Assembly: GCA_023131975.1 (NCBI GenBank)
Contig: JAGLYV010000035.1
Location: 1-48,957, forward strand
Direction of reading: 5' to 3'
Length of the DNA stretch: 48,957 bases
From: Candidatus Krumholzibacteriia bacterium
Lineage (GTDB): Bacteria > Krumholzibacteriota > Krumholzibacteriia > Krumholzibacteriales > Krumholzibacteriaceae
Each line of letters begins with the position of its first letter. Positions within the stretch are counted from its first letter, which is position 1. The notes beneath the pieces are model-generated. The model ran no database searches. It was given only the letters and a program-made list of their open reading frames with translations, and was not told the origin of the DNA. This document shows, one piece after another, positions 335-48,103 of this stretch. Both the position numbers and the translations under genes were made by a program.

Positions 335-1366
335 ATGTCGCTATCCCCCTGTTTCCGCCTTATCATGACTGCCACGGTTCTTTCTTTTCTTTTCCATTCA
401 GGTTGTGCCACGAAGGACGATCGCTCGTCCGGTGACACTTTCCCCGTACTGACCGGCGACTATTTTGGACAGGTCCCTCCCGGAAATGAACCTGAGCTGT
501 TTGCGCCCGGACTTATCTCGACCTGCCTGTTCACAAGGGATGTCGCAATGACGCCTGAGGGCGACGAGATCTTCTTCACGAGCGTCGTCGGCAGATACAA
601 TATCACACAGATCCTCCACACCAGAAGGATCGATGGTGTATGGACCAGTCCCGAGGTCGCTTCTTTCTGCGGTAATATCGACTACATGGACGCTGAGCCG
701 TTTATCACCCCCGATGGTAAACGTCTTCTATTCCTTTCAAACAGGCCTGATACGGCCAACGGAAAGCCCGCCAACCAGGATATCTGGGCTGTGGACAGAA
801 CGGAAGGCGGCTGGTCGGAAGCGTATAATATCGGCGGTCCGATCAATACAGAGGCCCCGGAATTCTTTCCTTCAGTCACGAGGGACGGCACTTTCTATTT
901 CACCCGGACCGTGGGACGGTCCAGTTATATCTTCCGCTCACGGTTGATCGATGGGAAATATGCGGAGCCCGAGAAACTTCCAGAACAGGTAAACTCCACA
1001 AACCAGCAGTACAACGCCTTTATCGCTCCGGATGAAAGTTATATCATCGTACCGACCGGGGGGCGTGAGGATTGCCTCGGTGGGGACGACTACTATATCT
1101 GTTTCAGAAACACGGACGACACGTGGAACGAACCCGTAAACATGGGGATCCCGGTCAACTCAAAATACGGCAGTGAGCATTCAGCATACCTGTCTCCGGA
1201 CGGCAGATACTTTTTCTTCATGTCCGCTAGAATGAGTGATGATATAGTATTCCCGAACGGCAGGATCACACGTGACCTGATGCTCCGCATGCATAACGAG
1301 CCCGGAGGGGTACAGGCTTCCATCTACTGGATGGACGCATCGTTCATCGAAGGACTCCGTCCCTGA
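335..1366 (+). CDS. Putative lipoprotein with WD40-like (PD40/TolB-type) beta-propeller
   Basis: The 343-residue protein opens with a short hydrophobic segment (about residues 10-22) and a Cys after Ser-Gly, which looks like a lipobox, although His at -3 is atypical. The rest carries PD40-type repeats of the form 'S/TPDG-x-x-hhF', for example TPEGDEIFF, TPDGKRLLFLS and SPDGRYFFFMS, typical of TolB-like propellers. GGAG at 325-328 is spaced 6 bases from the ATG and fixes the start. It is one of only two plus-strand genes and converges with pcrA, with 15 bases between the stop codons. Propeller lipoproteins of this kind usually sit in the periplasm and bind proteins or glycans. No specific function can be assigned. 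Confidence 0.7.
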   Translation: MSLSPCFRLIMTATVLSFLFHSGCATKDDRSSGDTFPVLTGDYFGQVPPGNEPELFAPGLISTCLFTRDVAMTPEGDEIFFTSVVGRYNITQILHTRRIDGVWTSPEVASFCGNIDYMDAEPFITPDGKRLLFLSNRPDTANGKPANQDIWAVDRTEGGWSEAYNIGGPINTEAPEFFPSVTRDGTFYFTRTVGRSSYIFRSRLIDGKYAEPEKLPEQVNSTNQQYNAFIAPDESYIIVPTGGREDCLGGDDYYICFRNTDDTWNEPVNMGIPVNSKYGSEHSAYLSPDGRYFFFMSARMSDDIVFPNGRITRDLMLRMHNEPGGVQASIYWMDASFIEGLRP

Positions 1367-1381
1367 GGATGAATCCGCCAC

Positions 1382-3538
1382 CTATCTGAATTTGAACGGC
1401 GCGTAACTGGCAAGAAACTTTTTCGTCCCGAAACCGGTGAACTGGACCGAGACCTTCATCTCCTGACCGGTTCCCTCTATCTTTTTGATAGTCCCTTCCC
1501 CGTATGAGGGATGAAAGATCACCACACCCACCCTGTATCTTGTATCGCTCTGCCTCGTATTTTTGCTGGAGGCGAATGACTCCGGAGAATCGACCCGCTT
1601 GAAAAGATCGTCTCCATAGCTCCCGGGACGCGCGCTCCCTGACACCTCCACCAGTTCAGCGGGGATCTCCCCGAGGAATCGGGAAGGCCTGTTTCCAGTC
1701 CAGTTACCGAACTGCATCCTGCTGGAGGCGCATGTAAGAACGAGCTTCTCCATAGCCCTGGTCATCCCGACATAGAAGAGCCTCCTCTCCTCTTCCAGTT
1801 CGACATCGTTGTCGAACGCCGAATAATGAGGCAGCAGACCTTCTTCTACACCAGTGACAAACACGGCTCGATATTCGAGCCCCTTCGAATTGTGTAATGT
1901 CATCAGGGAGACCTTTTCATCGTTCTTCAGGGAATCGATAGCGCTGACCAGGGCGATCTCCTCGAGAAATGCCGCGAGAGACGGATCCTCTGACATCGAA
2001 GAAAAACGCTCGGTCTCATTAAGGAGTTCTTCGATATTCTCCATGCGGACCTGTTGAGTCTTTGGATCTTCCCCGAGGTACTCCCTGTAACCGACGGTTT
2101 CGATCAATCCTGACAGGATCTCCCAGACAGTATCTTTCCTGGTTCGAAGCTGAAACGAGGCTATCATTTTCGAAAATTCCTCTATCCGGCCGCGCTGATT
2201 CGACGAGAGCTTCCCGATCACATCGTCCCTTCGTACCGCCTCCAGAAGATTGAGGGAACCAGCTTCTTTCTCAATACGTTCAAGAGTCACTTTTCCTATT
2301 TTCCTGCGGGGCACATTCACTATCCTGCGAAAATTCACATCATCGTCAGGATTGGCTATCAGCTTCATATATCCGAGCAGGTCCTTTATCTCTTTTCTCT
2401 CGTAAAACCTGAGACCACCTATTATCTGATAGGGTAGCCCTCCCCTCATCAATTCCGACTCCAGAGCCCTGGACTGAGCGTGAGTACGATACAGGACAGC
2501 GATCTCACTTCTCTTGAACCCGCTTCGGATCAATGAGACGATCGTATGTCTGACCACCGCGGCCTCGCTCCTGTCGTCAGGTTCATAGTCGATCAGAAGA
2601 GGTTCTCCGCGGCCTTTCTTCGACCACAGTTTCTTCCCTTTTCGCCCGATATTATTCGCGATCACAGCATTTGACGCTTCCAGGATAGTATTGGTGGACC
2701 GGTAGTTCTCCTCCAGTTTGATGGTCACTGTTCCCTCATATACCTTATCAAACTGGAGAATATTATCGATAGTGGCACCCCGCCAGCCGTAGATCGCCTG
2801 ATCGTCATCTCCGACAACAAAAAGGTTACCATGCATGCTGGCCAGCATATCGATCATCATCATCTGTATCGTGTTGGTGTCCTGGAATTCATCGACCAGA
2901 ACGTAACGGAACTGCCTGGAGTAACGCTCTTTCACCTTGGGATACGCCGTGAATAGTTCTACCACCCTGGTGATCAGATCGTCGAAATCGAATGAATTAC
3001 ATTTTTTCAGTTCACTGCAGTATCGCTGATAGACCTCCGCCTGAAGTTCCTCCACCACATCCGCCGCGTTTTCCAGTGCTTCTTCCGGAGTGACAAGGTC
3101 GTTCTTCCATCTCGATATCCTCGCCTTCAGTATCGAAGGTGGGTATTCGTCGAGTTTCCACCCTTTCTTTTTTATGATATCTTTAATAAGGCTCTGCGCG
3201 TCATCCTCATCATAGATCGCAAAGTTTCTTCTGAACCCTATATTCTCAGCCTCGCGCCTGAGTATTTTCAGGCCGGTCGCGTGAAAGGTGCCGACCCAGA
3301 AAGGAATCTTCTGTTGTCCGAGGTTCCTTTCAACTCTCGACCTCATTTCTCCGGCAGCCTTGTTGGTAAAGGTGAAGGCAAGTATACGCTCGGGAGATAC
3401 CTTTTTCTCCCTTATCAGGTAGGATATTCTTTCGGTAAGGACCCTCGTCTTGCCACTTCCCGCGCCAGCGAGGATAAGGTAATGGCCCTCCGTGGCGAGG
3501 ACCGCTTTCTGTTGTTGTTCGTTCAGTCCGGTGCTCAT
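1382..3538 (-). CDS. pcrA: PcrA/UvrD-type ATP-dependent 3'-5' DNA helicase
   Basis: This is a 718-residue superfamily 1A helicase of normal length. The Walker A motif GAGSGKT is at about residues 25-31. DEFQDTN (Walker B) and QAIYGWRGA lie in domain 1A, ENYRST follows, and the C-terminal part has the SLMTLHNSKGLEY and RRLFYVGMTRA motifs. The C-terminal domain ends in a VxHPxYGxGxI-like segment typical of PcrA, which binds RNA polymerase or DNA. The protein unwinds DNA in nucleotide excision and mismatch repair and removes RecA. It lies 45 bases downstream of the zincin-propeller-barrel gene, so it may be the last gene of the tam transcription unit, which is an odd functional pairing. Confidence 0.95.
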   Translation of the reverse strand: MSTGLNEQQQKAVLATEGHYLILAGAGSGKTRVLTERISYLIREKKVSPERILAFTFTNKAAGEMRSRVERNLGQQKIPFWVGTFHATGLKILRREAENIGFRRNFAIYDEDDAQSLIKDIIKKKGWKLDEYPPSILKARISRWKNDLVTPEEALENAADVVEELQAEVYQRYCSELKKCNSFDFDDLITRVVELFTAYPKVKERYSRQFRYVLVDEFQDTNTIQMMMIDMLASMHGNLFVVGDDDQAIYGWRGATIDNILQFDKVYEGTVTIKLEENYRSTNTILEASNAVIANNIGRKGKKLWSKKGRGEPLLIDYEPDDRSEAAVVRHTIVSLIRSGFKRSEIAVLYRTHAQSRALESELMRGGLPYQIIGGLRFYERKEIKDLLGYMKLIANPDDDVNFRRIVNVPRRKIGKVTLERIEKEAGSLNLLEAVRRDDVIGKLSSNQRGRIEEFSKMIASFQLRTRKDTVWEILSGLIETVGYREYLGEDPKTQQVRMENIEELLNETERFSSMSEDPSLAAFLEEIALVSAIDSLKNDEKVSLMTLHNSKGLEYRAVFVTGVEEGLLPHYSAFDNDVELEEERRLFYVGMTRAMEKLVLTCASSRMQFGNWTGNRPSRFLGEIPAELVEVSGSARPGSYGDDLFKRVDSPESFASSKNTRQSDTRYRVGVVIFHPSYGEGTIKKIEGTGQEMKVSVQFTGFGTKKFLASYAPFKFR

Positions 3539-3583: not shown

Positions 3584-6500
3584 TCAGAACTGAGAACCCA
3601 GATAGAAGTGAAATACAGAATCGCCAGTGTATGAGAAATCCGTCGGCCAGGCAAGCTGGAAATTGAGGATGAGAAAACCGAATCTCATATAGAATCCCAT
3701 TCCGAAATCGCTGTAGAATTTGAGTCCGTTGATCTCTCTGGCATCGATCCCCGCGGGCAGAGGCTCCACATACATGTCCTCCCCCCACACACTCCCGGTA
3801 TCAAAAAAGAATGTCCCGCCGACATTGGTAAATCCCCATCTGCCGGGCCAACCGAAAATCAGGGCATCCACCAGAGGGTAACGGTATTCGAGGTTAAAAA
3901 GCATCATCTTCGGCCCCTGGAACTGAAGATAATCATACCCTCTCATCGTCAGGGGCCCCCCAAGGAAAAAATATCTCTTATCGAGACCATCGCTGACAGA
4001 ACCTACTGCCCTGAACGCGAGGTAGTTCCTGTACCAGAGAGGCATGTATTTTCGATAGTCGGCAAAGAAAGTGGTCCTGGAAACATCATCGCCGGAAAAG
4101 GAAAGAGCCCGGGAAAAGCTGACCATCCACCTGGAACCGATCACCGGACCGTAAGAACCATAATATGCCGAATCGTGGACAAGGGATATCGAAGGCTGCA
4201 ACAGCCTTCGGGTCGATATTTCGCCCGCCAGGGGAACATAATATCCTCCGTAACTCTCATTTTCGTCCCAGGTCAGGAACTCCCTTTCGCTTATATATGC
4301 CTGAAGTTCCAGTTCCACCCTTGTAAAGGTCGAGAACGGAAAACTTGCATTTCCGAAGACTCCGTAATTTCTTTCAGAGAAAAATCGATAATCAGTGAAT
4401 GCTTCTCCGATCGAGGAGAATCTCGAATTGAGGTAGTTCTTGAACTGGAACACTCCCACCGAATAATCGATACGTTTTTTCACGTAATAGTAGGAAAGCA
4501 TAAGATCGCTATCCTCGATCGACCCGAAAAGATTGAATGCCAGAAAGAGATGATGGTCCCCAAGGAGATCGCTGAATGCTATCTGGTTTGCCAGACCGAA
4601 TCCGAAGCCCGTAGAAAAAAACAGACCCATTCCGTTACCTATGTAATCAGGGGAAAATTTGGCATCGTAGGGTCTGATCGTTCCGATCTCCTTACGGAAT
4701 TCGTTCCTCATGGCCTCGAGAGAATCGGGATCGATATCTTTTTTCGAATCCTCCTCGATCACAACATCCGGAGTCTCTACGGGGATCTTCCACTTCATCC
4801 CTGGAAGTTTCCCTCCTGTTGGAGTTCCCCCGACACTTTCGACCCTCACCGAACCGGAGATCTCAAGAACATCCTCCCCACCGGAGTCAAGCGAGCCAAT
4901 ACTCCCTTCGTCCACTCCACCATCAACAAAGGCCCCGGGATCCTGAAACATCATTTCGCCCGAAGGTATCATTCCGAACGAAGGCCATTCCGCACTGAAT
5001 TTCACCATGAGGGGACTGCCTGTAGAATAGGAGACCGCAGATTTATCGATGAAACTGTCCATTATGTACAGGTCGTAGCCAGCCATGTTAAACCCGGAAT
5101 AAACAAGATTGTCTCCAATACTCGAGTATGACGGATTGAATATACCTCCCGGCACATCAGTAAATCTGTAATAGCTGCCCACCTCCAGGCTTCCCCTGTA
5201 AAGGTTGCTGACACCGGTCTCGTCGGATGTAAATATTATCTCTTTCCCGTCAGAAATGATAAGCGGGGATTCGTCGTTACCCGGCGTCGCTATCAGAAGT
5301 TCTTTTTCGCCGCTGTCAAGATCTATGCTCCAGATATCACCTGTCACATCAAGGAGATTTCTCATAGAGGTAAAATCAACGCCTGTAAGTCTTGGATTAC
5401 CGTCATCCCCCTGATTAAAACCATGCTGTACCGCGACCTGGGGAAATCTCGTATATGCTATTCTGGTCCCTCCGGGAAACCAGGATAGATATTTTTCGTC
5501 TTCCAGATCGTCTGTGACTCTCAGCAGCGATTGTTTCCCGATATTATAGACATATATGTCTGTCTGACCATCTATTGTCCCGACAATAGCGATCGATTCT
5601 CCGATCGGTGACCACGAGGGATTAAAAAAGAAATCGAGAGGCAATTCGATCTTCTTGAGTATTTCTCCGCCGGGAACCTTCATTATGAAAAGTTTGTCCT
5701 TCCCATCTGACTTGGCCACAAAAACGATACTTTTACCGTCCGGGCTCCACGACAGGCTCGATTTCAAAGTGCGTATATACTCAAACTCGCTTGACATAGA
5801 GCTGGAAAGAAGCTTGCCGGTCACCTCCCCGGTAAGGGAATTCATAAGGTAGATACCCTGGAGTCCACTCCTGTCGGAATAAAATACGATATTCCTTCCG
5901 TCAGGAGAAAAAACAGGTTTCGAGTTCATGTAGTGATGTTTCTTCATATGATCGGTGAGCTGTCTGCCAAAAAAATCGGGTTCCTCCTTACCGGCATAGA
6001 CCGGCCAGTATCTTTTTCTGAGGTCCTTTTTCCAGTCTTGAGTCAGTTGCTGCGTGGTCAACCCGATCGAGTTCTGAAGAGCGATCTCGAGTGACCTCTG
6101 ATACCGGAGCTGATCCATCAATTCGACGATCTTCTCATTGCCATACGTCCTGCATATATAGTCAATGGCCGACTGCCCGGCCTTGTAATTCATATATCCG
6201 CCCGCATAAGCCAGATCAAAGGGGAGATAGTCGAAGATCGTGCCATCCCGCATGAACATCTCACATTCATCGTCCATGCCGCCTATCGAATAGTATTCCG
6301 CCATTCCTTCGGCAAACCATAACGGGATCCGGAACAGGAAACTGCGGGAGAATACGGATCTCAGAAGATTCCCATATATGATATCGAACTGGAATATATG
6401 TACCAGCTCATGGATCGCGGTATGACTGAAATCGACGTTTGAACCACTGAAATGCAGGACCATCCGTCTTCTACTCGGCTCTGCAAAAGCCTGGACTCCC

Positions 6501-6844
6501 TCAGGAAGCAGTTGCCATGTCGTATTGGTCTGCTGAAAATCGGTATGACTGCCATATATAATAACGGGTATACGCCATTTAAGTTGATGATCAAAATCAC
6601 CCGACAGCTTGCCATAACCGTACTCAAGGATTACCGCCGTCCTGGCGGCGAGATCCCTGTATCCTTCGCTGAAATGGATATCAAAATGTGGAGTGGTAAG
6701 TATGCTCCAGTGGAAATCCTTGTATTGTACCTTGTTCTTGCCGAACCACCATGCCTGGGAATTGCTGCCGGTGGGAAAAGAGAGAGTGGTCGCCAGAGTC
6801 AGCAGAATAATCACGACACGCTTCAAATATACCGCACCTTTCAT
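3584..6844 (-). CDS. Exported peptidase MA-like zincin fused to PD40 propeller and Omp85/BamA-type barrel
   Basis: The protein has 1086 residues in three parts. A signal peptide (about 1-30) precedes a gluzincin-like domain with HELVH at 145-149 and a downstream FAEGMAEY segment giving the likely glutamate zinc ligand. From about 300 to 620 there are at least six PD40 blades, for example FSPDGRNIVFYSD and WSPDGKSIVFVA. The last 330 residues form a surface-antigen/Omp85-like barrel with GGPLTMRGYDY (compare the L6 VRGY/F motif) and a terminal Phe. The start at 6844 is preferred over 6853 because GGAGG is 9 bases upstream of the former and touches the latter. It lies 81 bases after tamB. By inference it is an outer-membrane protein with a periplasmic peptidase; substrate unknown. 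Confidence 0.8.
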   Translation of the reverse strand: MKGAVYLKRVVIILLTLATTLSFPTGSNSQAWWFGKNKVQYKDFHWSILTTPHFDIHFSEGYRDLAARTAVILEYGYGKLSGDFDHQLKWRIPVIIYGSHTDFQQTNTTWQLLPEGVQAFAEPSRRRMVLHFSGSNVDFSHTAIHELVHIFQFDIIYGNLLRSVFSRSFLFRIPLWFAEGMAEYYSIGGMDDECEMFMRDGTIFDYLPFDLAYAGGYMNYKAGQSAIDYICRTYGNEKIVELMDQLRYQRSLEIALQNSIGLTTQQLTQDWKKDLRKRYWPVYAGKEEPDFFGRQLTDHMKKHHYMNSKPVFSPDGRNIVFYSDRSGLQGIYLMNSLTGEVTGKLLSSSMSSEFEYIRTLKSSLSWSPDGKSIVFVAKSDGKDKLFIMKVPGGEILKKIELPLDFFFNPSWSPIGESIAIVGTIDGQTDIYVYNIGKQSLLRVTDDLEDEKYLSWFPGGTRIAYTRFPQVAVQHGFNQGDDGNPRLTGVDFTSMRNLLDVTGDIWSIDLDSGEKELLIATPGNDESPLIISDGKEIIFTSDETGVSNLYRGSLEVGSYYRFTDVPGGIFNPSYSSIGDNLVYSGFNMAGYDLYIMDSFIDKSAVSYSTGSPLMVKFSAEWPSFGMIPSGEMMFQDPGAFVDGGVDEGSIGSLDSGGEDVLEISGSVRVESVGGTPTGGKLPGMKWKIPVETPDVVIEEDSKKDIDPDSLEAMRNEFRKEIGTIRPYDAKFSPDYIGNGMGLFFSTGFGFGLANQIAFSDLLGDHHLFLAFNLFGSIEDSDLMLSYYYVKKRIDYSVGVFQFKNYLNSRFSSIGEAFTDYRFFSERNYGVFGNASFPFSTFTRVELELQAYISEREFLTWDENESYGGYYVPLAGEISTRRLLQPSISLVHDSAYYGSYGPVIGSRWMVSFSRALSFSGDDVSRTTFFADYRKYMPLWYRNYLAFRAVGSVSDGLDKRYFFLGGPLTMRGYDYLQFQGPKMMLFNLEYRYPLVDALIFGWPGRWGFTNVGGTFFFDTGSVWGEDMYVEPLPAGIDAREINGLKFYSDFGMGFYMRFGFLILNFQLAWPTDFSYTGDSVFHFYLGSQF

Positions 6845-6925
6845 CGTAATCATCCTCCAGGGTTCAACATGAGAGCCGCTTTAAAGATGGCGTTTCAACT
6901 CTTCTTCTTCAAGTAAAAACCTCAT

Positions 6926-9900
6926 TTAGAACTCCCACCTGATCTTAAGGTCGACGTTGTATTCATCACCGCTTCTCCTGCTGCCTCCCTGAATCAGTTT
7001 TTCGGAATACATGATGACCTCGGACCGGATCTGAAACAGTCGGCTCAATCTGTATTCAACTTCGAAATGTCTGGCCGTAGAGATCGACAACCCTTGCTTG
7101 TATTTAACGTAGAGCCCCTCAGACAGGTACTTCCCTATCGCTACCACTGTCTGGTTCAGCTCGAATCCTGACGATACTCCACCGGCCCCGCCTGACGCCT
7201 CCAGCTCTATGGTGATTCCCTCCATCTGGGAATTGAGCATCTTCTCAACATAGTTTGCCGCCAGATTCTGAGCGGTGTTCAACGCTCTCCAGCCGGCTTC
7301 CGTCCCGTCCTCCCCTCCAACTACTCCTCCCCCGAGCATCTTCCAGATATCAGTCTCGCTGTATCCTGGATCTTCATGGTAAAGGGAGAGCCTCGGCTCG
7401 ATATCGTCCTGATGCCAGGAAAGTAACAGGTATATTTTTCTACCCTCTGGATCCAGTGTCTCGGCCTCGATATCGACGATCGGCCTCATACTCTCAGCAT
7501 GAACGAATTCAAGTCTCCCGGTTTTGACCCGGAACTTATTGTTATACACATTGTACCAGCCCCTGATCAGATCCAGCTTGCCTCTCAGATATGTTCCCCT
7601 GCGGTCGTGGTGGATCGTAACATTTCCCTGCATTTCAACATTGGCGTCGGGAGTCTTTATCCAGGTATTTCCTCTTGCTTCCAGTTCGATTTCCGCTAAC
7701 CAGCGGGGAAGCTCCATCGTCCCTTTCGTGCCGGTCGATGAGAACTCACCTATATCGAAATAGACCTCCGCCCTGTTGACATCAAGCATCCCTGTAATGG
7801 AAGGGACGAGGCGTCCCTCATGTTCCAGAGTACCGACTTTCAGGTCACCTGAAACGACAGCCATTATATCAGGAATGCTTGCCAGGAGAAATTTGTCCAG
7901 ACTGGCTCCAAGGTCGTACCTGGAAGGTCTCCATCCATCAAGGGTGATCGTTCCTCCGCAATCGAATGTACCATCACGCCCCTCACGGCCGACGAGGGAT
8001 GTTATGGTAATGAGTGTATCTTCCAGTATCACTGTCGCGTTGACATCCCTGAATCTTTCTTCCATTCCGGAAAATCGGAAAGTACCGTCAAAAAGGTTAA
8101 GTTCACCATGGAGTTTCGGGTCGTTGAAAGTCCCGTCTATCCTCAGACCGACCGAATACCTGCCGCCCGCTTCAGCGACCACATCGGTCATTTCCGTAAA
8201 ATCGGCAAGATCACTCTCTTTCATGTCCAGTTCGAGGTTCAACGGTTCGTTCCCGGCCGGTGAATAGAACCAGTCCGCTTCCTCGACAGGTATCTTCCCG
8301 CTGAAAAAGCCTTCTTTTCCACCGGGGCACAGAAGGCTACCCTCCATCAGGAACCCATCCTTGTCCACGGACGCGTCGAAACGGACACCGTGCAGAGTGA
8401 TTGGATCTGAAGCCAGACTGTCTATTACTCCTTCCATAACTATCGATGGATGTACAAGTGAATCTCTTACCGAGACAGTACCGGTAAACTTCCCGCCGTT
8501 AAAAAATGATCGGTCTGTCATCCGGAGAAAAGGCGCCATCTCCAGATTATCACATTCGGTTCTTATATCCAGGCTCAGCTCGTCCCATCCCCTACCATTA
8601 CCACCAAAAGCCTCGACGTATCTCAATCCGGACAGAGAACCCGAAAGCATGAAAGTTCCTCCCGGAGAAGCAACCCGCATATTATCTATGGCTGTCACGC
8701 CTTCCGAATATTCAGCCACGAGTCGAATGCTGTCTATCTCAATCGAGTCAACAGCAGCCGGCCCGGCAGAAATATCCAGATCAAAGCATGGATCACTGAT
8801 CGATCCACTCAGACTCAGGCTCCCCCGCGTCCTTCCCTCAAGAGGGACCGACACGATCCCCGCCTCCTCGACAAGCGATAATCCAAGCCTTTCGAAACGC
8901 AAGGCGCTGTCTATCTTTCTTTCCCTGCTCTCATAACGACCGTCAAGATAGAGTGCCCCCATTTTTGAATGCAGCTGGATATCATGAATGTCTATCTTAC
9001 CGCTTTCCAGTGTGATCTCGGAGGCTCCTCCGCTTGTCCAGTCCTCTCCCAGAACGTTGATCTCGGCGTTTTGAACAATAATAGAGACTTCTCCATCATC
9101 AGCACTTACCGAGATGCTCGCTTCTCCCAAAAATCCGGGGCGTGAAAGTCTCAGTTTTTTTATATCTGTGATCCCGTCTATGTATTCCAGAGAAAGCGCC
9201 ATATCGTCGAAAGGAATCGGCCCTACATGGCATGTATCTCCCTCCATCTCCATGAAGAAATCGCTGGATTCTCTCTTCTTCAGGATCAGCTTGACATCAC
9301 CTGTCGATACCTTGGTGAATTCATATTCGAGATTCGAGAATCTTCCATTCGCAATCAGGTCCCACTCTTTCAGATTTCCTTCCCAGATCCCGTTCAACGA
9401 CACATCGCCCCTGTACTCTTCGATATCGAAATACGGAAAGAGCGTATCCTGCCTGGCAGCGTTCAGATCGAAATAGAACTTTATTCCTCCGCCTGTCGTT
9501 ATCAGGCCGTCCGACCTTATGTCATGTGTGGGAGATTCGAGGACGATGGAATGGAAAGTTGTAGTGTCTGCCACGAACCCACCTATGATCCTGCCGCTAT
9601 CAAATGGGATTCCCCTGAAATGTCCCTCCTGGAGGTCCAGATCGAACCGCAATCCGGCCGGAGAGGGCCCGTAATCGAGCTTTATCAATCCGTTCAGCAT
9701 TGTCTCCGGCAGATTCACTCCCCTGACAAACCCGGCAGAAAGATCGAGTCCTTTCGCGTCAAGCTGAAGGGAGACCGAATAGTTACCTCCAAGGACCAGT
9801 TCTCCGGTTCCATCGATCTCCGAACCGTTAAACCTGCCCCATCCCCTGTTCATAAGTAATACCGGGGATCTCCATGACATATCGATCCGGAAGGATTCAA

Positions 9901-10828
9901 GTGCGTACCCCGAGAAGATCCCGTTGACCATACCTCTGATATCGAGACTTCCCGGCACTCCTCGTACAGCCAGAGCCCCCTGAAGTTCTCCATATTGTGT
10001 AGTCTTAATCCCGAGCGCTCTGGTTACCTCTTCGACTTCCAGTGGCTCCGCCGCTATATTCAGGTCGAAGAACATCGAATCCGGGTCAACGGTCCCATTG
10101 ACTATCATGGTGGATTCATCGAGTTCGAGGAAAAGATCTTCGAGCCGCAGGATTCCCCCGGCGCTTCGATTCAGGTCGCCATCATCGTTACTCCACCGCA
10201 GGCCTCCATTAATATTCCTGAAATGCAGCATCCTCCTGATATCTTCTCCACTACCGCTTTCTATATCGATCTTCAAACCGTCGCTATCAGCAGTGATACG
10301 CCCGTCCAGATCCAGTTTCCTGACGGCATCGGCCATCCTGGGCCCCTGGTATATAAACTGTCCCTCTCTGATGACGAACCTGCGGATCTCAAAAGAGGGG
10401 TTTGTGCCCGCCACGTCACCCCCTGAATGTGGGAAAACGTTGATTCCGGATGTGTCCGGTTTTATCCATACATGCGGCCTGTCGAAGATGATAGTCTTGA
10501 TAACCGGGTTCATGCTGAACATGGAATGCAGGTCATATTCACACTGTAATCTCTCTATTCGGACTACATCATAGGAAAAGTCATCCCCATTATACCTGAC
10601 ATACAGCCCGTCAAAGGTAACGTTCTTCAGAGGATTACCGGAAAGACGGTCGATATGAAGAGAAAACCTGGTGCCCGCAAAAAAGAACCTTGTAAGCATC
10701 TGGCTCGCCCTGTGGGCAAAGAAATCGGTGTGAAATATCAACAAGAGGACAATAATTACCGTCATGGACAAGGCTATTATCAGCGATATCCAGGAAGTTA
10801 TTTTTGATTTCAGTAACCGCTTGACCAA
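6926..10828 (-). CDS. tamB: TamB-like translocation and assembly module protein (AsmA/DUF490 family)
   Basis: The 1300-residue protein has one N-terminal membrane anchor (about residues 13-35). A very long, repetitive beta-rich region follows, with recurrent segments such as 'G.h.hdg....' typical of the AsmA/TamB beta-taco fold. The C-terminal TamB domain (about 950-1300) ends in VDLKIRWEF, the usual C-terminal aromatic strand. TamB spans the periplasm and works with TamA in outer-membrane protein insertion; AsmA relatives move phospholipid between membranes. It starts 15 bases after the tamA stop, so the two are clearly cotranscribed. The length is normal for the family. Confidence 0.9.
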   Translation of the reverse strand: MVKRLLKSKITSWISLIIALSMTVIIVLLLIFHTDFFAHRASQMLTRFFFAGTRFSLHIDRLSGNPLKNVTFDGLYVRYNGDDFSYDVVRIERLQCEYDLHSMFSMNPVIKTIIFDRPHVWIKPDTSGINVFPHSGGDVAGTNPSFEIRRFVIREGQFIYQGPRMADAVRKLDLDGRITADSDGLKIDIESGSGEDIRRMLHFRNINGGLRWSNDDGDLNRSAGGILRLEDLFLELDESTMIVNGTVDPDSMFFDLNIAAEPLEVEEVTRALGIKTTQYGELQGALAVRGVPGSLDIRGMVNGIFSGYALESFRIDMSWRSPVLLMNRGWGRFNGSEIDGTGELVLGGNYSVSLQLDAKGLDLSAGFVRGVNLPETMLNGLIKLDYGPSPAGLRFDLDLQEGHFRGIPFDSGRIIGGFVADTTTFHSIVLESPTHDIRSDGLITTGGGIKFYFDLNAARQDTLFPYFDIEEYRGDVSLNGIWEGNLKEWDLIANGRFSNLEYEFTKVSTGDVKLILKKRESSDFFMEMEGDTCHVGPIPFDDMALSLEYIDGITDIKKLRLSRPGFLGEASISVSADDGEVSIIVQNAEINVLGEDWTSGGASEITLESGKIDIHDIQLHSKMGALYLDGRYESRERKIDSALRFERLGLSLVEEAGIVSVPLEGRTRGSLSLSGSISDPCFDLDISAGPAAVDSIEIDSIRLVAEYSEGVTAIDNMRVASPGGTFMLSGSLSGLRYVEAFGGNGRGWDELSLDIRTECDNLEMAPFLRMTDRSFFNGGKFTGTVSVRDSLVHPSIVMEGVIDSLASDPITLHGVRFDASVDKDGFLMEGSLLCPGGKEGFFSGKIPVEEADWFYSPAGNEPLNLELDMKESDLADFTEMTDVVAEAGGRYSVGLRIDGTFNDPKLHGELNLFDGTFRFSGMEERFRDVNATVILEDTLITITSLVGREGRDGTFDCGGTITLDGWRPSRYDLGASLDKFLLASIPDIMAVVSGDLKVGTLEHEGRLVPSITGMLDVNRAEVYFDIGEFSSTGTKGTMELPRWLAEIELEARGNTWIKTPDANVEMQGNVTIHHDRRGTYLRGKLDLIRGWYNVYNNKFRVKTGRLEFVHAESMRPIVDIEAETLDPEGRKIYLLLSWHQDDIEPRLSLYHEDPGYSETDIWKMLGGGVVGGEDGTEAGWRALNTAQNLAANYVEKMLNSQMEGITIELEASGGAGGVSSGFELNQTVVAIGKYLSEGLYVKYKQGLSISTARHFEVEYRLSRLFQIRSEVIMYSEKLIQGGSRRSGDEYNVDLKIRWEF

Positions 10829-13227: not shown

Positions 13228-14580
13228 TCATCTCATAAGATTAAAGATATCCAGGAACAGGATAAATGCCATCAGTGCGATCAGTATGTAGAACCCTATC
13301 TGCAGCATCACATTCTGGACCTTCGGACTCGGTTTCACACCAGTCGTACCTTCCAGCAGGAACAGGACAAAATGCCCCCCGTCGAATGGAAGTATCGGCA
13401 ACAGGTTGAATATGGCCAGGTTCATCGAAAAGAATGCCAGGAAATTAATCAGATAGCTGAATCCCCACCTGATCATATCGCCTGCCATCACTCCCACCCT
13501 GATAGGACCACCAACGGCGCGCAGGGTAGCTTTACCGGTGACAAGTTTCCCCAGAAAATCAATGATCGCCATGAACAGATTGTTGAAAGCCCTCGTCCCA
13601 TAAACAACTGATTCGCTGAATGATACAGGGACCTTGTCGTAGTACTCACCAACACCTATCGCTCCGACCTGGACCACGTCCAGCTTTTCTCCCTGCGAGG
13701 GAGCGTCCATCCCTGTCGGTGTGATCATCGCGGAAAGAAATTCTTCGTCCTGCCTCCACGTGAATTTCAATGGAATCCCGTTATGGGAATATATCTTCTC
13801 TGCGACTTCTATGTATGTGTACACAAGTGTATCGTTTATTGCGATGATCTCCGCGCCTCTTTTCAGCCCTGCCTCTTCTGCCGGACTGTCTCGCTTTACG
13901 TCTCCGATCCTGGCCGGGCCAGACGAAAATATCCCGAGGGTCAGCCTTTCGGCTTCTTCATCCCACCTGGGTACAATAGAAAAGGTCAGGGTCTCTTCGC
14001 CCCTCAGTATCTTGAAAGTGGATCGTACGCCCTCTTCGTAAACGACCAGATCTCTTATCTGCGAATCCTTATCGAGGCCATGGTCGTTGATCTCGATCAC
14101 TCTGTCTCCACGGAGAAGGCCTGCCTCCTCGGCAGGTGACCCCGCGACGACTCCGCTGATTATAGAATCAGGTTCTCTGACAAAGATCCCCTGTCCCCAG
14201 ATATTGAATATATAGAGCAGAAGCGCCAGGACCGCGTTCATTACCGGTCCGGCCAGAACCACAGACATCCTCTGATAGGGGTTCTTGTTCCTGTAGAGCC
14301 GGTGTTCTGGAATATCCAGGTCATCGACCTTTTCCTCGCCATCTTTCTTGCCTCCCTCGTCCGCATCTTCCCCGGCAAACTTTACGTATCCCCCGAAAGG
14401 AAGAGCGGATATGGCGTATTCTGTCTCTCCCCATTTGAACTTCAGGATCTTCGGGCCAAAACCCATGGAAAAGGTGATTACATATATCCCGTTCATCTTT
14501 GCGACCAGAAAATGTCCCAGTTCATGAACAAGTATCACGATGCTCAAAACAAATAGAAATGCGGCTATAGTCAGTAACAT
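13228..14580 (-). CDS. rseP: RseP-type site-2 intramembrane zinc metalloprotease
   Basis: The 450-residue membrane protein has HELGH near the N-terminus (zinc ligands). Two PDZ domains follow, with GSPAEEAGLLRGD and DSPAEEAGLKRGA. The second zinc motif near the C-terminus reads NLLPILPFDGGH; the usual LDG is FDG here, with the Asp kept. RseP cleaves transmembrane anti-sigma factors and signal-peptide remnants, often after a DegS-type cut. The start overlaps the dxr stop by 10 bases, giving translational coupling. The order cdsA-dxr-rseP is widespread in bacteria. The stop converges with the small lipoprotein gene and no terminator is visible between them. Confidence 0.95.
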   Translation of the reverse strand: MLLTIAAFLFVLSIVILVHELGHFLVAKMNGIYVITFSMGFGPKILKFKWGETEYAISALPFGGYVKFAGEDADEGGKKDGEEKVDDLDIPEHRLYRNKNPYQRMSVVLAGPVMNAVLALLLYIFNIWGQGIFVREPDSIISGVVAGSPAEEAGLLRGDRVIEINDHGLDKDSQIRDLVVYEEGVRSTFKILRGEETLTFSIVPRWDEEAERLTLGIFSSGPARIGDVKRDSPAEEAGLKRGAEIIAINDTLVYTYIEVAEKIYSHNGIPLKFTWRQDEEFLSAMITPTGMDAPSQGEKLDVVQVGAIGVGEYYDKVPVSFSESVVYGTRAFNNLFMAIIDFLGKLVTGKATLRAVGGPIRVGVMAGDMIRWGFSYLINFLAFFSMNLAIFNLLPILPFDGGHFVLFLLEGTTGVKPSPKVQNVMLQIGFYILIALMAFILFLDIFNLMR

Positions 14581-15752
14581 GTATCCTCCGTAACCCCTTC
14601 TATCCCGGCATATTTATCGCGCAGGAATTCTCTGGTCCATCTATCAGCCTCCAGAACGTCTCCGACAGTCTCTATCTTTGCCGGAGAATGCGCTGAGAGG
14701 GCTTCCTCTATCCATTCAATTATCGCCATAAACCCTATTCTACCCGACAGAAAATTTGATACAGCCATTTCGTCGGCAGCGTTGAGTACGACAGGAGCCG
14801 TACCTCCGGTCCTCATCGCCTCTACACTCAGTTCAAACCCCCGAAACCTTCCCTTCTCCAGGGAATGAAATTCGAGACTGCAGAGCTCATCGAGAGACAG
14901 CTCCTTCCATGGAAACTCTCTGACTTCGGGAAAGAAGAAAGCATTCATTATCGGCAATCTCATATCCGGAGGACTGAGATGTGCAAGAAGCGAACCATCT
15001 CGCATCCTGATCAGGGAATGTACTATAGACTGCGGATGTATGACAACCTTGATATCATCTATGGGAAAATCAAACAGCCAGTGTGCCTCAATGACTTCCA
15101 GTCCCTTATTGATCATGTGAGCCGAATCAACAGTCACTTTCTTCCCCATGTTCCAGGTAGGATGGTCAAGGACCTGTTCGAGAGTCACATCGACCAATGT
15201 CTCCGGATCCCTGTTAAAAAACGGGCCTCCGGAAGCGGTAAGGACAAGCTCCGTAGTCTTGTCTCGATTCCCGGACAGACACCTGCTCAGGGAGAAGTGC
15301 TCACTGTCCACAGGGATTATCCTTTCCCTGTCCTTACCGACCATTCCCATGACCAGCCCGCCTCCCGTAACAAGGCTCTCCTTGTTTGCGAGAGCCACAC
15401 TGCATCCGCATTCAAGAGATGTGATAGTGGGCATCAGGCCGGATATCCCTACAAGAGCATTTACGACAAGATCAGGAGAGGTCTCCCGGATCATGGCCTC
15501 GATGCCAGTCGGGCCGGTTCCCACCAGCCTCCCGGCGAAAGACCCGTCTGAAGAAAGCAGGCCCTGCAGGAGGTCATCATCCCTGATAGTAAATTTCGCC
15601 TCCGGGAACTCGACAAGCTGTTTTTCGAGCAAATCGACGTTTCTGCCCGCTGCCAGCCCTACGACCTCGATATCACCTATACCTGCGCCAGCTATCTCCA
15701 GAGCAGCCTTTCCTATCGATCCTGTCGACCCGAGAATCAAAACCTTTTTCAA
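14571..15752 (-). CDS. dxr: 1-deoxy-D-xylulose-5-phosphate reductoisomerase
   Basis: This 393-residue enzyme of the non-mevalonate isoprenoid pathway converts DXP to MEP with NADPH. The N-terminal dinucleotide motif is GSTGSIGKAALEIA. NKESLVTGG, the metal motif VDSEH and the substrate motif TASGGPF follow. The loop normally reading DSATxMNKGLE is DSAHMINKGLE here: Asn, Lys and Glu are kept but the Thr is replaced by His. It lies 11 bases after cdsA and overlaps rseP. Together with uppS and cdsA it supplies isoprenoid and lipid precursors for the envelope. Confidence 0.95.
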   Translation of the reverse strand: MKKVLILGSTGSIGKAALEIAGAGIGDIEVVGLAAGRNVDLLEKQLVEFPEAKFTIRDDDLLQGLLSSDGSFAGRLVGTGPTGIEAMIRETSPDLVVNALVGISGLMPTITSLECGCSVALANKESLVTGGGLVMGMVGKDRERIIPVDSEHFSLSRCLSGNRDKTTELVLTASGGPFFNRDPETLVDVTLEQVLDHPTWNMGKKVTVDSAHMINKGLEVIEAHWLFDFPIDDIKVVIHPQSIVHSLIRMRDGSLLAHLSPPDMRLPIMNAFFFPEVREFPWKELSLDELCSLEFHSLEKGRFRGFELSVEAMRTGGTAPVVLNAADEMAVSNFLSGRIGFMAIIEWIEEALSAHSPAKIETVGDVLEADRWTREFLRDKYAGIEGVTEDTCY

Positions 15753-15763
15753 AAAAGACCTTC

Positions 15764-16648
15764 TTATTCGAGAATAAAATATTTTAGAAAATAATAGATC
15801 ATAGGCGCCGTAAAAAGCAGAGAATCGAATCTATCAAGGACTCCTCCATGCCCCGGTATCGCTCCGGATGAATCCTTTATCTTCACGTCACGTTTCAGCA
15901 TCGACTCGACAAGATCACCCAGTTGACCAATGATCGAAGCCATGAATGCCAGCCCTATGGCCTCATATATCCCCAGGAAAGTAAGCAATGTCTGCCTGAC
16001 GATCAGTATTCCCGCAATTGAGAATACGAGTCCGCCCAGGGCACCTTCGATCGTCTTTCCCGGTGATATCGACGGAAAAAGCTTGTGCTTACCAAACAAC
16101 CTGCCGATCGTATAGGCTCCCGTATCGTAGCACCATGTCAGCGTAAAGATCATTATAACGAAGTAATATCCGTACCTGTATTCCAGGCCCGCGAGGACGG
16201 GGAGTTCCCGTATGAGAACAAGATGGCTCCCGAGCCATGCGACATAGAGGACGCCAAAAACAGTAACGGAGATATGATATACCGCAAGCCCCTTCTCTCT
16301 TCTCGCCAGTTCCATCAGCATAATACCGATAAAGATAATACTCAGGAGAAAATTCACGTATATACCCTGCTGGAAGAATATGTACCATGGAAGGGCAATG
16401 CCACTGAGGATCCCTATAGTCTTGTAGGGAGACAACCCCTTGACTTCCATCATCCTGTAAAACTCCAGCAGACCGACCAGGATGATGATGTCAATGAGTA
16501 TCAGGTAGTATATACCTCCCCGCCACGCGATGACTAAAAGGCATGGAAGGAAGATGGCGGACATGACCAGGCGAAGAAACAGGGAACTCGATTTATCCGA
16601 CCCTGACTTTTTCTTTTCACCCTCATTCTGATATCCGATATCGCTCAT
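15764..16648 (-). CDS. cdsA: Phosphatidate cytidylyltransferase (CDP-diacylglycerol synthase)
   Basis: The 294-residue protein has a charged cytoplasmic N-terminus (about 25 residues) followed by about eight hydrophobic segments. The CdsA signature near the C-terminus is clear: SMLKRDVKIKDSS, then IPGHGGVLDRFDS. CdsA makes CDP-diacylglycerol from CTP and phosphatidic acid, the branch point to all major phospholipids. Its ATG overlaps the uppS stop by four bases, and it is followed by dxr after 11 bases. Length and topology are normal. Confidence 0.95.
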   Translation of the reverse strand: MSDIGYQNEGEKKKSGSDKSSSLFLRLVMSAIFLPCLLVIAWRGGIYYLILIDIIILVGLLEFYRMMEVKGLSPYKTIGILSGIALPWYIFFQQGIYVNFLLSIIFIGIMLMELARREKGLAVYHISVTVFGVLYVAWLGSHLVLIRELPVLAGLEYRYGYYFVIMIFTLTWCYDTGAYTIGRLFGKHKLFPSISPGKTIEGALGGLVFSIAGILIVRQTLLTFLGIYEAIGLAFMASIIGQLGDLVESMLKRDVKIKDSSGAIPGHGGVLDRFDSLLFTAPMIYYFLKYFILE

Positions 16649-17394
16649 TTCCGACTCTTCACTCCTCCAAACCGCCTCTCGCGCCCCATAAAATCATTCA
16701 CTGCCGCCAGCAGATGTTCCTCCCTGAAATCCGGCCAGTAGAGATCCGTTACGAATATCTCCGAATAAGCGATCTGCCACAACAAAAAATTACTTACCCT
16801 GAGTTCCCCACTACTCCTGATCAACAGATCCGGATAAGGAAGGTCGGGCGAATAGAGGTAGCTCCTGAATGTCTCTTCATCTATCGTGCCAGCACTGATC
16901 TTCCCCTCACCGGCATCCTCCGTGATCCTGTTTACCGCATCCAGTATTTCAGCTCTGCCACTATAACTGAGACAGAGATTCAGGATCATGCCGTCGTTAC
17001 CAGAAAGCTTCTCGATCGTCTTCTCGAGTTCTTTTCGGGTCACATCGGGAAGAAGTTCAAGTCGGCCCATAGCTCTCAGCCTGACATTGTTCTCATTCAG
17101 TTCCAGGTATTCAGATCTCAAGACATTTCTGAGAAAGGTCATAAGGGCCTGGACCTCGCGTTTCGGCCGGGTCCAGTTTTCCAGAGAGAATGTATAGAGG
17201 GAAAGCACGGAAATCCCGAGTTTGGCAGCAGTGCGCACGACACATCTCACCGATTCCCTGCCGGCCCGGTGTCCCGCTATACGGGGCAATTTGCGCTGCT
17301 TTGCCCACCTGCCGTTTCCATCCATTATTATGGCAATGTGGTCAGGCAGCCTCCGATCGCCTTTCAGCGCGGCGATCTCCTTTTCCAGATCCAT
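16645..17394 (-). CDS. uppS: Undecaprenyl (di-trans,poly-cis-decaprenylcistransferase) diphosphate synthase
   Basis: The 249-residue cis-prenyltransferase has all key motifs: HIAIIMDGNGRWA with the catalytic Asp near the N-terminus, GHRAG, LYTFSLENW, and the C-terminal block DLLIRSSGELRVSNFLLWQ with the isopentenyl-diphosphate-binding Arg residues. It elongates farnesyl diphosphate to the C55 carrier used for peptidoglycan and surface glycans. It starts 35 bases after frr and overlaps cdsA by four bases, in the conserved order frr-uppS-cdsA-dxr. Confidence 0.95.
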   Translation of the reverse strand: MDLEKEIAALKGDRRLPDHIAIIMDGNGRWAKQRKLPRIAGHRAGRESVRCVVRTAAKLGISVLSLYTFSLENWTRPKREVQALMTFLRNVLRSEYLELNENNVRLRAMGRLELLPDVTRKELEKTIEKLSGNDGMILNLCLSYSGRAEILDAVNRITEDAGEGKISAGTIDEETFRSYLYSPDLPYPDLLIRSSGELRVSNFLLWQIAYSEIFVTDLYWPDFREEHLLAAVNDFMGRERRFGGVKSRK

Positions 17395-44219: not shown

Positions 44220-44317
44220 TGGCGGGAACGTGTGGGAATCGAACCCACCCCGGATGGTTTTAGCACCCAGCAAAAGGATTTGAAGTCCTCGGGGCCCACC
44301 AGAACCCGTCCATTCCC
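44220..44317 (-). tRNA. selC: tRNA-Sec (anticodon TCA)
   Basis: The 98-base gene, including an encoded CCA, has the features of bacterial selenocysteine tRNA. The anticodon loop is CTTCAAA on a GAGGA/TCCTT stem. The D stem has 6 pairs (GGGTTC with GGGCCC) and a 4-base loop. A long variable arm is closed by CTGGGTG and CATCCGG, with a T arm GTGGG-TTCGATT-CCCAC. The acceptor stem is GGGAATG with CGTTCCC; the eighth pair expected in tRNA-Sec is a G-A mismatch. Discriminator G is as in E. coli selC. It decodes UGA through SelA and SelB, which are not in this window. Confidence 0.95.
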
Positions 44318-44791: not shown

Positions 44792-46624
44792 CTATTCCAC
44801 CGTCACACTCTTTGCCAGGTTTCTCGGCTGATCGACATGGCAACCTCTCATCACCGCTATATGATACGCAAGCAACTGCAGCGGTATCACGGACAGGATA
44901 GGATAGAGGAAATCAAGGGTCTTGGGTACAAAGATCACATGATCGGCCATCTTGATCAATTCATCGTTTCCCTCACTTGTAATGGCGATGATCTTTCCCT
45001 TTCGGGCCTTCACCTCATTGATATTTCCTACGATCTTCTGGTAGGCGGCGTCTCTCGGAGCGATGATGACTACAGGCATGTTGTCATCAATAAGCGCAAT
45101 AGGGCCATGCTTCATCTCAGCGGCCGGATATCCTTCCGCGTGGACATAAGATATTTCTTTCAGTTTGAGCGCCCCTTCGAGAGCGACGGGATAGTTAGCG
45201 CCCCTGCCCAGATATAGAAAGTTGTTGTGGTGATGATACTCTTCCGCGATTACCCGTATCTTCTCATCCGATTCCAGGATATGGGTCACCTGGTCGGGCA
45301 GAGCTCTCAGGGCTTTGATCATCTGCTGCCCTTCAGCAAGTGAGATATCCCTCATCCTCCCCAGAGCAAGAGCCAGGAGACTGAGGACAGTTATCTGGGA
45401 GGTGAAAGCCTTCGTTGAGGCCACACCGATCTCCGGTCCGGCATGGATATAGATCCCCGCCTCTGACTCCCTGGCGATGGTGCTTCCGACGACATTGCAT
45501 ATCCCCATCGCCTGAGCCCCCTTGCTTTTCGCTTCCCTGAGCGCGGCAAGTGTATCGACTGTCTCTCCGGACTGGCTGATCGCGAACACCAGGGTACCAT
45601 CTTCCATGATAGGGTTTCTGTACCGGAATTCACTGGCATATTCCACTTCGACAGGGATCCTGGCCGTCTCCTCGATCATATATTCTCCAAGAAGACCTGC
45701 GTGCCAGCTCGTTCCACAACCCAATATGACGATCCGCCGGATTTCCCGGAGCTGTTCATCGGTAAGGTCCAACCCCCCCAGCTTTGCCTTTCCGGTATCG
45801 TTGATCAACCTCCCTCTCATCGCGTTTCTGATGGTCTCCGGTTGCTCGAAGATCTCTTTCAGCATGAAATGTTCGAATCCGCCCTTTTCGATCATGTCCA
45901 GGTCCCAGTCGATCTCCTGGATCTTATGTTCGACATATTCGTTTTCTACCGTCATCGTCATAAAGTGTCCGGGGGTGGCAACGACCATCTGCTGGTCCTC
46001 CAGATAGATGACCTGCTTCGTGTGCTTGAGTATCGCCGCTACATCACTGGCGATAAAATACTCATCGTCTCCTATACCAACCACTACGGGAGAACCATTT
46101 CGCGCGCCTACAAGTTTGTCAGGCTCAGATTCGGAAATTACGATAATGCCATAAGTTCCCTCGACTACCTTAAGTGCTTTCTGAACAGCATCCTCAAGGT
46201 TTTTGCCATTGTAGAATTTCTCTATCAAATGTACGAGGATCTCTGTGTCTGTTTCGGACCGGAATTCATGTCCCTCGGCCAGCAGAGATTTCTTCAAAGT
46301 CTGGTAATTCTCGATGATCCCGTTATGGACCAGAGCTATACGCATCTTGGAATCATAGTGAGGATGAGCGTTGATCCTGTTAGGCTCTCCGTGAGTAGCC
46401 CAACGCGTATGCGCGATACCCAGGCTACCGGAAATATCCATATCCTTGAGACGTTCCTCGAGCTTCGCGATCTTACCCGGTGTTTTCTCAGTCACCATGG
46501 AATTGTCCCGGATAATGGCGATTCCCGCTGAATCGTATCCCCTGTACTCGAGTCTTTTCAGGCCCTCAAGTAGTATCTCGCCGACCTTTCTGCTTCTTCC
46601 AGTGTAACCAATTATCCCGCACAT
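44792..46624 (-). CDS. glmS: Glucosamine-fructose-6-phosphate aminotransferase (isomerising)
   Basis: The 610-residue enzyme begins MCGIIGYTG, with the catalytic Cys2 of the glutaminase domain, and has HTRWATHGEPNRINAHPH. The two SIS sugar-isomerase domains contain ILGCGTSWHAG, SQSGETVDTLAALREA and EMKHGPIALID, and the C-terminus is DQPRNLAKSVTVE. It makes glucosamine-6-phosphate from fructose-6-phosphate and glutamine. The 51-base gap to glmM is too short for a glmS ribozyme. Confidence 0.98.
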   Translation of the reverse strand: MCGIIGYTGRSRKVGEILLEGLKRLEYRGYDSAGIAIIRDNSMVTEKTPGKIAKLEERLKDMDISGSLGIAHTRWATHGEPNRINAHPHYDSKMRIALVHNGIIENYQTLKKSLLAEGHEFRSETDTEILVHLIEKFYNGKNLEDAVQKALKVVEGTYGIIVISESEPDKLVGARNGSPVVVGIGDDEYFIASDVAAILKHTKQVIYLEDQQMVVATPGHFMTMTVENEYVEHKIQEIDWDLDMIEKGGFEHFMLKEIFEQPETIRNAMRGRLINDTGKAKLGGLDLTDEQLREIRRIVILGCGTSWHAGLLGEYMIEETARIPVEVEYASEFRYRNPIMEDGTLVFAISQSGETVDTLAALREAKSKGAQAMGICNVVGSTIARESEAGIYIHAGPEIGVASTKAFTSQITVLSLLALALGRMRDISLAEGQQMIKALRALPDQVTHILESDEKIRVIAEEYHHHNNFLYLGRGANYPVALEGALKLKEISYVHAEGYPAAEMKHGPIALIDDNMPVVIIAPRDAAYQKIVGNINEVKARKGKIIAITSEGNDELIKMADHVIFVPKTLDFLYPILSVIPLQLLAYHIAVMRGCHVDQPRNLAKSVTVE

Positions 46625-46675
46625 ATCATTCTCCTTGCAGGCTTATCGTTCCAGAAAACCGGGCCTGTCACTCTA

Positions 46676-48028: not shown

Positions 48029-48074
48029 AACTATATCCTTTTCCCGGTTCACGCGTCTCCAATAAATGAATGTA

Positions 48075-48103
48075 AAAGTATCCGGAACACTCGACTCTGT
48101 CAA
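48075..48103 (-). promoter_or_regulatory. Probable promoter for glmM-glmS-ridA
   Basis: TTGACA (48098-48103) is followed after 17 bases by TACTTT (48075-48080) on the minus strand. The -35 is perfect and the -10 weak. It lies between the acs terminator and the glmM start, leaving a leader of about 40 bases. Confidence 0.5.

What the first reader, a model, noticed from the sequence alone, without database searches (positions are those of the whole stretch)
3584..6844. Zincin-propeller-Omp85 fusion in one gene next to tamAB
One protein joins a signal peptide, a gluzincin-like HELVH peptidase domain, at least six PD40 blades and an Omp85-like barrel with an RGY motif. It is the next gene after tamA and tamB. 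This would place a peptidase and a protein-binding propeller permanently on an outer-membrane pore, possibly for quality control or for release of exported proteins. The domains are visible; the function is inference.
Basis: partly seen in the sequence, partly recalled or inferred. Interest (0 to 1): 0.6.

Follow-up and report, generated by a model that had tools for sequence, protein, structure and literature searches.

The report
Metalloprotease-propeller-Omp85 fusion linked to TamB
A single outer-membrane protein that joins an intact zinc-protease domain, a TolB-like propeller and a BamA-like barrel is real, widespread and often encoded beside the TamA-TamB assembly/lipid-transport machinery, but the propeller-plus-barrel family was already catalogued and I found no report of what it does.

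Summary
The gene at 3584-6844 (-) encodes 1086 aa: signal peptide, gluzincin domain (HELVH plus a WxxEG third ligand), six-bladed TolB-like propeller, variable linker, Omp85 barrel with the RGY motif and a terminal Phe. It is not an artefact: 75 homologous frames, inside the window's phylum (Krumholzibacteriota by named relatives) and well outside it, have the same three domains, and H145, E146, H149 and E179 are unchanged in all 75. A barrel-only model matches BamA barrels. The gene follows an Omp85 gene and the genome's only tamB; it directly follows tamB in 28 of 30 loci of the phylum and in 4 of 57 genomes from other phyla. The neighbouring 'tamA' is a second, 3-POTRA, TamA-like Omp85; the canonical BamA lies elsewhere. 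The kind is partly known: Heinz & Lithgow (2014) defined a 'WD40-Omp85' subfamily without a tested function. The protease domain and tamB linkage seem undescribed in what I could read. Eight related genomes keep tamB without a detectable copy, so it is an accessory. Most likely it is a periplasm-facing, barrel-anchored metalloprotease for outer-membrane assembly quality control; function is inference.

The parts
3584..6844 (-). CDS of the zincin-propeller-Omp85 fusion, 1086 aa (an in-frame ATG also lies at 6853)
6755..6844 (-). probable Sec signal peptide (about residues 1-30; cleavage site inferred from sequence)
   Evidence: sequence and alignment of relatives
5975..6739 (-). gluzincin (Peptidase_MA_2) domain, about residues 36-290
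6398..6412 (-). HELVH zinc-binding/catalytic motif, residues 145-149
   Evidence: H145, E146 and H149 unchanged in 75/75 homologues
6305..6319 (-). WFAEG motif, residues 176-180; E179 is the probable third zinc ligand
   Evidence: W176, E179, G180 in 75/75 homologues; aligns with the WWSEG of a microbial collagenase
5045..5950 (-). six-bladed TolB-like beta-propeller (PD40 repeats), about residues 299-600
4685..5032 (-). poorly conserved, low-confidence linker, about residues 605-720; no POTRA recognised
   Evidence: linker length 21-181 aa among 75 homologues, no conserved column; low pLDDT
3587..4672 (-). Omp85-type beta-barrel, about residues 725-1086, ending in Phe
3935..3943 (-). RGY (Omp85 VRGF/Y-type) motif, residues 968-970
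   Evidence: R968 at least 95% conserved
6926..10828 (-). tamB, the only TamB gene found in the genome
10844..12880 (-). second Omp85 with 3 POTRA domains (TamA-like by context)
1382..3538 (-). uvrD-type helicase, conserved downstream neighbour
13228..17394 (-). rseP, dxr, cdsA, uppS: conserved upstream genes (rseP and dxr by Pfam; cdsA and uppS named by position and size only)

Best explanation
The gene encodes an outer-membrane protein exported through Sec. Its C-terminal Omp85 barrel sits in the outer membrane. Its N-terminal gluzincin domain and TolB-like propeller lie in the periplasm, tethered by a flexible linker. Most likely it is an accessory quality-control protease at sites of outer-membrane assembly, working beside the TamA-like/TamB pair: the propeller docks partners or substrates and the zincin trims or removes stalled or misfolded envelope proteins. 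Shown: architecture, zinc-site conservation, barrel homology, gene linkage. Inferred: topology, proteolysis, substrates, physical contact with TamA-like/TamB.
For: Zinc ligands and catalytic Glu unchanged in 75/75 homologues while the rest of the domain varies, so the chemistry is probably under selection. Barrel homology from PF01103, a PDB profile hit to Fusobacterium BamA at 1.9e-7 and fold search. Directly after tamB in 28/30 loci of the phylum and in 4/57 genomes outside it, about 0.17 expected by chance. Gaps of 15, 81 and 45 nt on one strand fit an operon. Precedents: PlpD's enzyme domain, also fused to an Omp85 barrel, stays periplasmic (PMC11116518); BepA, a separate zinc protease, degrades stalled OMPs at BAM (PMC13067283).
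Against: No activity or localisation data. Eight related, well-assembled genomes keep tamB but give no match to the protease domain, so TAM does not require it. In most genomes outside the phylum the gene is not next to tamB. The neighbours also include housekeeping genes (uppS, cdsA, dxr, uvrD), so linkage may reflect shared regulation only.
Confidence: 0.42

Rival explanations
1. It is mainly an assembly/scaffold factor, as Heinz & Lithgow suggested for WD40-Omp85 (a BamA-BamB-like fusion). The barrel helps insert or fold outer-membrane proteins, the propeller recruits partners, and the protease domain is secondary.
For: The barrel is clearly Omp85-type with the conserved RGY motif; 2014 proposal (PMC4104836); linkage to the TamA-like/tamB genes.
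Against: No POTRA: the linker is as short as 21 aa and unconserved. The zinc site is unchanged in every homologue examined, unlikely if secondary.
Confidence: 0.22
2. It is a maturation or surface-display device: the protease processes, or releases from the cell, specific secreted proteins or lipoproteins, or the N-terminal domains reach the surface through the barrel.
For: Omp85-superfamily TpsB proteins do translocate proteins (PMC4104836); a Salinibacter plasmid carries the protease-propeller pair without a barrel, so the soluble unit can exist alone.
Against: PlpD, once thought to display its enzyme, keeps it in the periplasm. No dedicated substrate gene was seen next to it; the conserved neighbours are envelope and housekeeping genes.
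Confidence: 0.15
3. It supports TamB-linked phospholipid transport or outer-membrane lipid balance, with the protease regulating TamB or another lipid-transport component.
For: TamB is reported to take part in phospholipid transport (PMC12045153); conserved tamB adjacency.
Against: Only linkage supports it; TamB-bearing relatives lack the gene.
Confidence: 0.12
4. An assembly artefact or chance run of domains.
For: None found.
Against: Three-domain frames in 75 homologues from many independent assemblies, some of them single-contig genomes.
Confidence: 0.01

Closest known systems
WD40-Omp85 subfamily (Heinz & Lithgow 2014, PMC4104836)
   Same: Omp85 barrel preceded by a TolB-like WD40/PD40 propeller and no POTRA
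   Different: The paper's main text describes only the propeller; here an intact gluzincin domain precedes it. I could not read its supplementary tables, so the domain may be listed there, and published members may well carry it.
'Metallo' Omp85 subfamily (same paper)
   Same: Described as an N-terminal metalloprotease on an Omp85 barrel
   Different: It was defined by PF00149, which to my knowledge is the calcineurin-like metallophosphoesterase family, not a zincin; no propeller is described. The window protein has no PF00149 match.
PlpD-type patatin-Omp85
   Same: Enzyme domain fused N-terminally to an Omp85 barrel; enzyme shown to be periplasmic
   Different: Patatin lipase and one POTRA instead of zincin and propeller. 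A separate patatin-Omp85 exists in this genome.
BepA, YcaL and LoiP (M48 proteases of OMP quality control)
   Same: Zinc proteases acting on outer-membrane protein assembly (PMC13067283)
   Different: Separate proteins of another family, not fused to a barrel; comparison from the literature, not by sequence here.
TolB and BamB propellers
   Same: Propeller fold; TolB is the best structural match
   Different: Separate periplasmic proteins or lipoproteins; no protease or barrel.

Membership tests
Omp85 superfamily | Omp85-type C-terminal barrel (PF01103 over its cut-off, fold like BamA) | tested here: met
   44 bits against 24 by the genome search; hmmscan finds it in 7/11 close homologues though not in this protein; fold search hits BamA. 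The barrel model is only moderately confident: pLDDT 59, pTM 0.62.
Omp85 superfamily | (V)RGF/Y-type motif in the barrel | tested here: met
   RGY at 968-970; R968 at least 95% conserved
WD40-Omp85 subfamily | N-terminal beta-propeller repeats before the barrel | tested here: met
WD40-Omp85 subfamily | clusters by sequence with the published members | not testable with these tools
   the member list is in supplementary tables that could not be read
BamA / TamA / TamL | one or more POTRA domains before the barrel | tested here: not met
   no POTRA match; linker 21-181 aa without conservation
Gluzincin (Peptidase MA clan) | HExxH and a downstream Glu ligand | tested here: met
   75/75 homologues; Peptidase_MA_2 in 16/16 domains scanned
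Gluzincin (Peptidase MA clan) | bound zinc and peptidase activity | not testable with these tools
   requires experiment; the AF2 model of this domain is of moderate confidence, below 50 at residues 150-172
TAM (TamA-TamB) component | gene linkage to tamB | tested here: met
   28/30 loci of the phylum; 4/57 genomes outside it
TAM (TamA-TamB) component | present wherever tamB is present | tested here: not met
   8/8 sampled relatives keep tamB without a match; the empty protease search had no positive control within that call
PlpD-type patatin-Omp85 | patatin domain | tested here: not met
   no match

The most novel reading that the evidence does not exclude
A recurrent third partner of the TamA-TamB system in several phyla: a barrel-anchored zinc protease that polices or regulates TAM-dependent assembly or lipid transport, with its protease built into an Omp85 protein rather than recruited as BepA is.
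Probability: 0.27. Interest if true: 0.7.

Novelty: new variant of a known kind. Interest (0 to 1): 0.45.

Why it matters
The functions of the non-POTRA Omp85 subfamilies are open. This one carries a strictly conserved protease site and a recurrent genetic link to tamB, which turns a catalogue entry into a testable link between outer-membrane assembly (or lipid transport) and proteolysis. It also covers a large, mostly uncultured part of diderm bacteria where envelope biogenesis is poorly known.

Tried and rejected
The neighbour as the organism's BamA: first suspected from TIGR03303, rejected when a 5-POTRA Omp85 scoring 484 bits was found beside skp-lpxD-lpxC/fabZ-lpxA. A natural tamA-tamB-fusion single gene: a 3042-aa open frame in L074 looked like one, but its upstream part is an out-of-frame read of a GC-rich stretch. 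Full-length AF2 gave a poor barrel, so the barrel was folded alone. A viral-contig search found no relatives and the viral fold search gave only generic propeller matches. Flavobacterium BamP was checked as an analogue; no protease or propeller was described for it in the passages read. Promoter and terminator scans were little better than shuffles.

Full report
Observation. The gene at 3584-6844 on the minus strand encodes 1086 aa. Pfam finds Peptidase_MA_2 above its cut-off and four PD40 stretches; AF2 places 22 strands between residues 305 and 596, which fits a six-bladed propeller, and TolB is the best PDB fold match. The barrel is recognised by PF01103 in a genome search (44 bits, cut-off 24), by NCBIfam Omp85_fam in all 11 close homologues and TIGR03303 in 7 (all below the NCBIfam cut-offs), and by a profile hit to Fusobacterium nucleatum BamA in the PDB (E 1.9e-7). 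hmmscan of this protein alone does not report PF01103, so the barrel call rests on the other searches and on its homologues. A barrel-only AF2 model (pLDDT 59, pTM 0.62) has BamA chains as 49 of its 50 best PDB hits, with TM-scores near 0.44 because the model is only moderately confident.

Zinc site. The comparison set is 76 frames, chosen by a score to the protease domain (not by the motif), from the phylum and from many lineages outside it; 75 of them also carry propeller and barrel. In those 75, H145, E146, H149, W176, E179, G180 and Y220 are unchanged; E183 is Glu in 73 and Asp in 2. The spacing from the HExxH motif to the WxxEG glutamate is 25-31 in nearly all. A profile of the domain gives weak PDB hits to microbial collagenases (E 0.017-0.02), whose WWSEG aligns with this WFAEG. 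All 16 domains scanned match Peptidase_MA_2. This is an intact gluzincin site by sequence; activity is untested. Because the set was selected by the protease domain, it does not tell how many propeller-Omp85 proteins lack it.

Anatomy. The linker between propeller and barrel varies from 21 to 181 aa without a conserved column, so there is no POTRA. The last residue is aromatic in 74 of 75. A second copy of the architecture lies elsewhere in the genome (934 aa, L079:9052-11856) and falls in a separate clade.

Distribution. In the phylum 54 of 80 genomes match at E 1e-70. Of 385 genomes searched from the genus to the rest of the domain, 119 match at 1e-80. A Salinibacter ruber plasmid gene has protease and propeller but no barrel. 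The fusion is therefore old and widespread.

Context. The window shows uppS-cdsA-dxr-rseP, a 347-nt gap, then Omp85(3 POTRA)-tamB-this gene-uvrD with gaps of 15, 81 and 45 nt. Of 30 loci read across the phylum (L049-L078), 28 have this gene directly after tamB on the same strand, and 27 of those have uvrD after it. Outside the phylum, 4 of 57 genomes with a homologue have it beside tamB (G212, G271, G284, G347); about 0.17 would be expected by chance (rough estimate, P about 3e-5). Three of the four lie in one small clade, so this is at least two lineages. The genome has one TamB. The neighbouring Omp85 passes the BamA model, but the canonical 5-POTRA BamA sits beside skp-lpxD-lpxC/fabZ-lpxA, so the window's copy is best called TamA-like.

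Counter-evidence. Eight well-assembled relatives of one family keep tamB but give no match to the protease profile, although the empty search had no positive control in the same call. TAM therefore does not need this protein; an accessory role fits.

What is known. Heinz & Lithgow (PMC4104836) defined a WD40-Omp85 subfamily and likened it to a BamA-BamB fusion; their 'Metallo' subfamily was defined by PF00149, which I believe is a phosphoesterase family. A 2024 paper on PlpD still lists WD40-like and metalloprotease Omp85 proteins as not well characterised (PMC11116518) and shows that PlpD's enzyme domain is periplasmic. No paper found by the searches described a zincin-propeller-Omp85 protein, but only open-licence full text was searched.

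Verdict. Real, widespread, architecture partly catalogued, protease domain and tamB linkage apparently undescribed. Function remains inference; the periplasmic quality-control reading is preferred at 0.42.

Noticed in passing
G000 C148, L098:8180-10495 (-): The genome's canonical BamA: five POTRA domains, 484 bits to TIGR03303, followed by skp, lpxD, lpxC/fabZ and lpxA.
   Followed up: yes
L079:9052-11856 (+) (G000 C147): A second zincin-propeller-Omp85 paralogue of 934 aa in the same genome, next to a diaminopimelate epimerase gene.
   Followed up: partly
L100:2518-4542 (-) and L099:64-1134 (+): Two further Omp85 proteins: a patatin-POTRA-Omp85 (PlpD-like) and one with no recognised N-terminal domain (its contig begins there, so it may be cut).
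   Followed up: partly
window 335-1366 (+): A stand-alone PD40 protein matching the CHU_0125/PorE families far below their cut-offs; its gene lies close to this cluster in several relatives.
   Followed up: no
window 44220-44317 (-): A selenocysteine tRNA gene; the nearby genes scanned at 44792-48103 are glmS and a phosphoglucosamine mutase, not selenocysteine machinery.
   Followed up: partly
L101:3917-5818 (+), Salinibacter ruber pSR116: Protease-propeller protein of 633 aa without a barrel, annotated 'basic secretory protein-like protein', in a plasmid region with a TonB-dependent receptor and a zinc transporter.
   Followed up: partly
G261:C20:44681-47962 (-): A homologue whose frame contains one in-frame TGA.
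   Followed up: no
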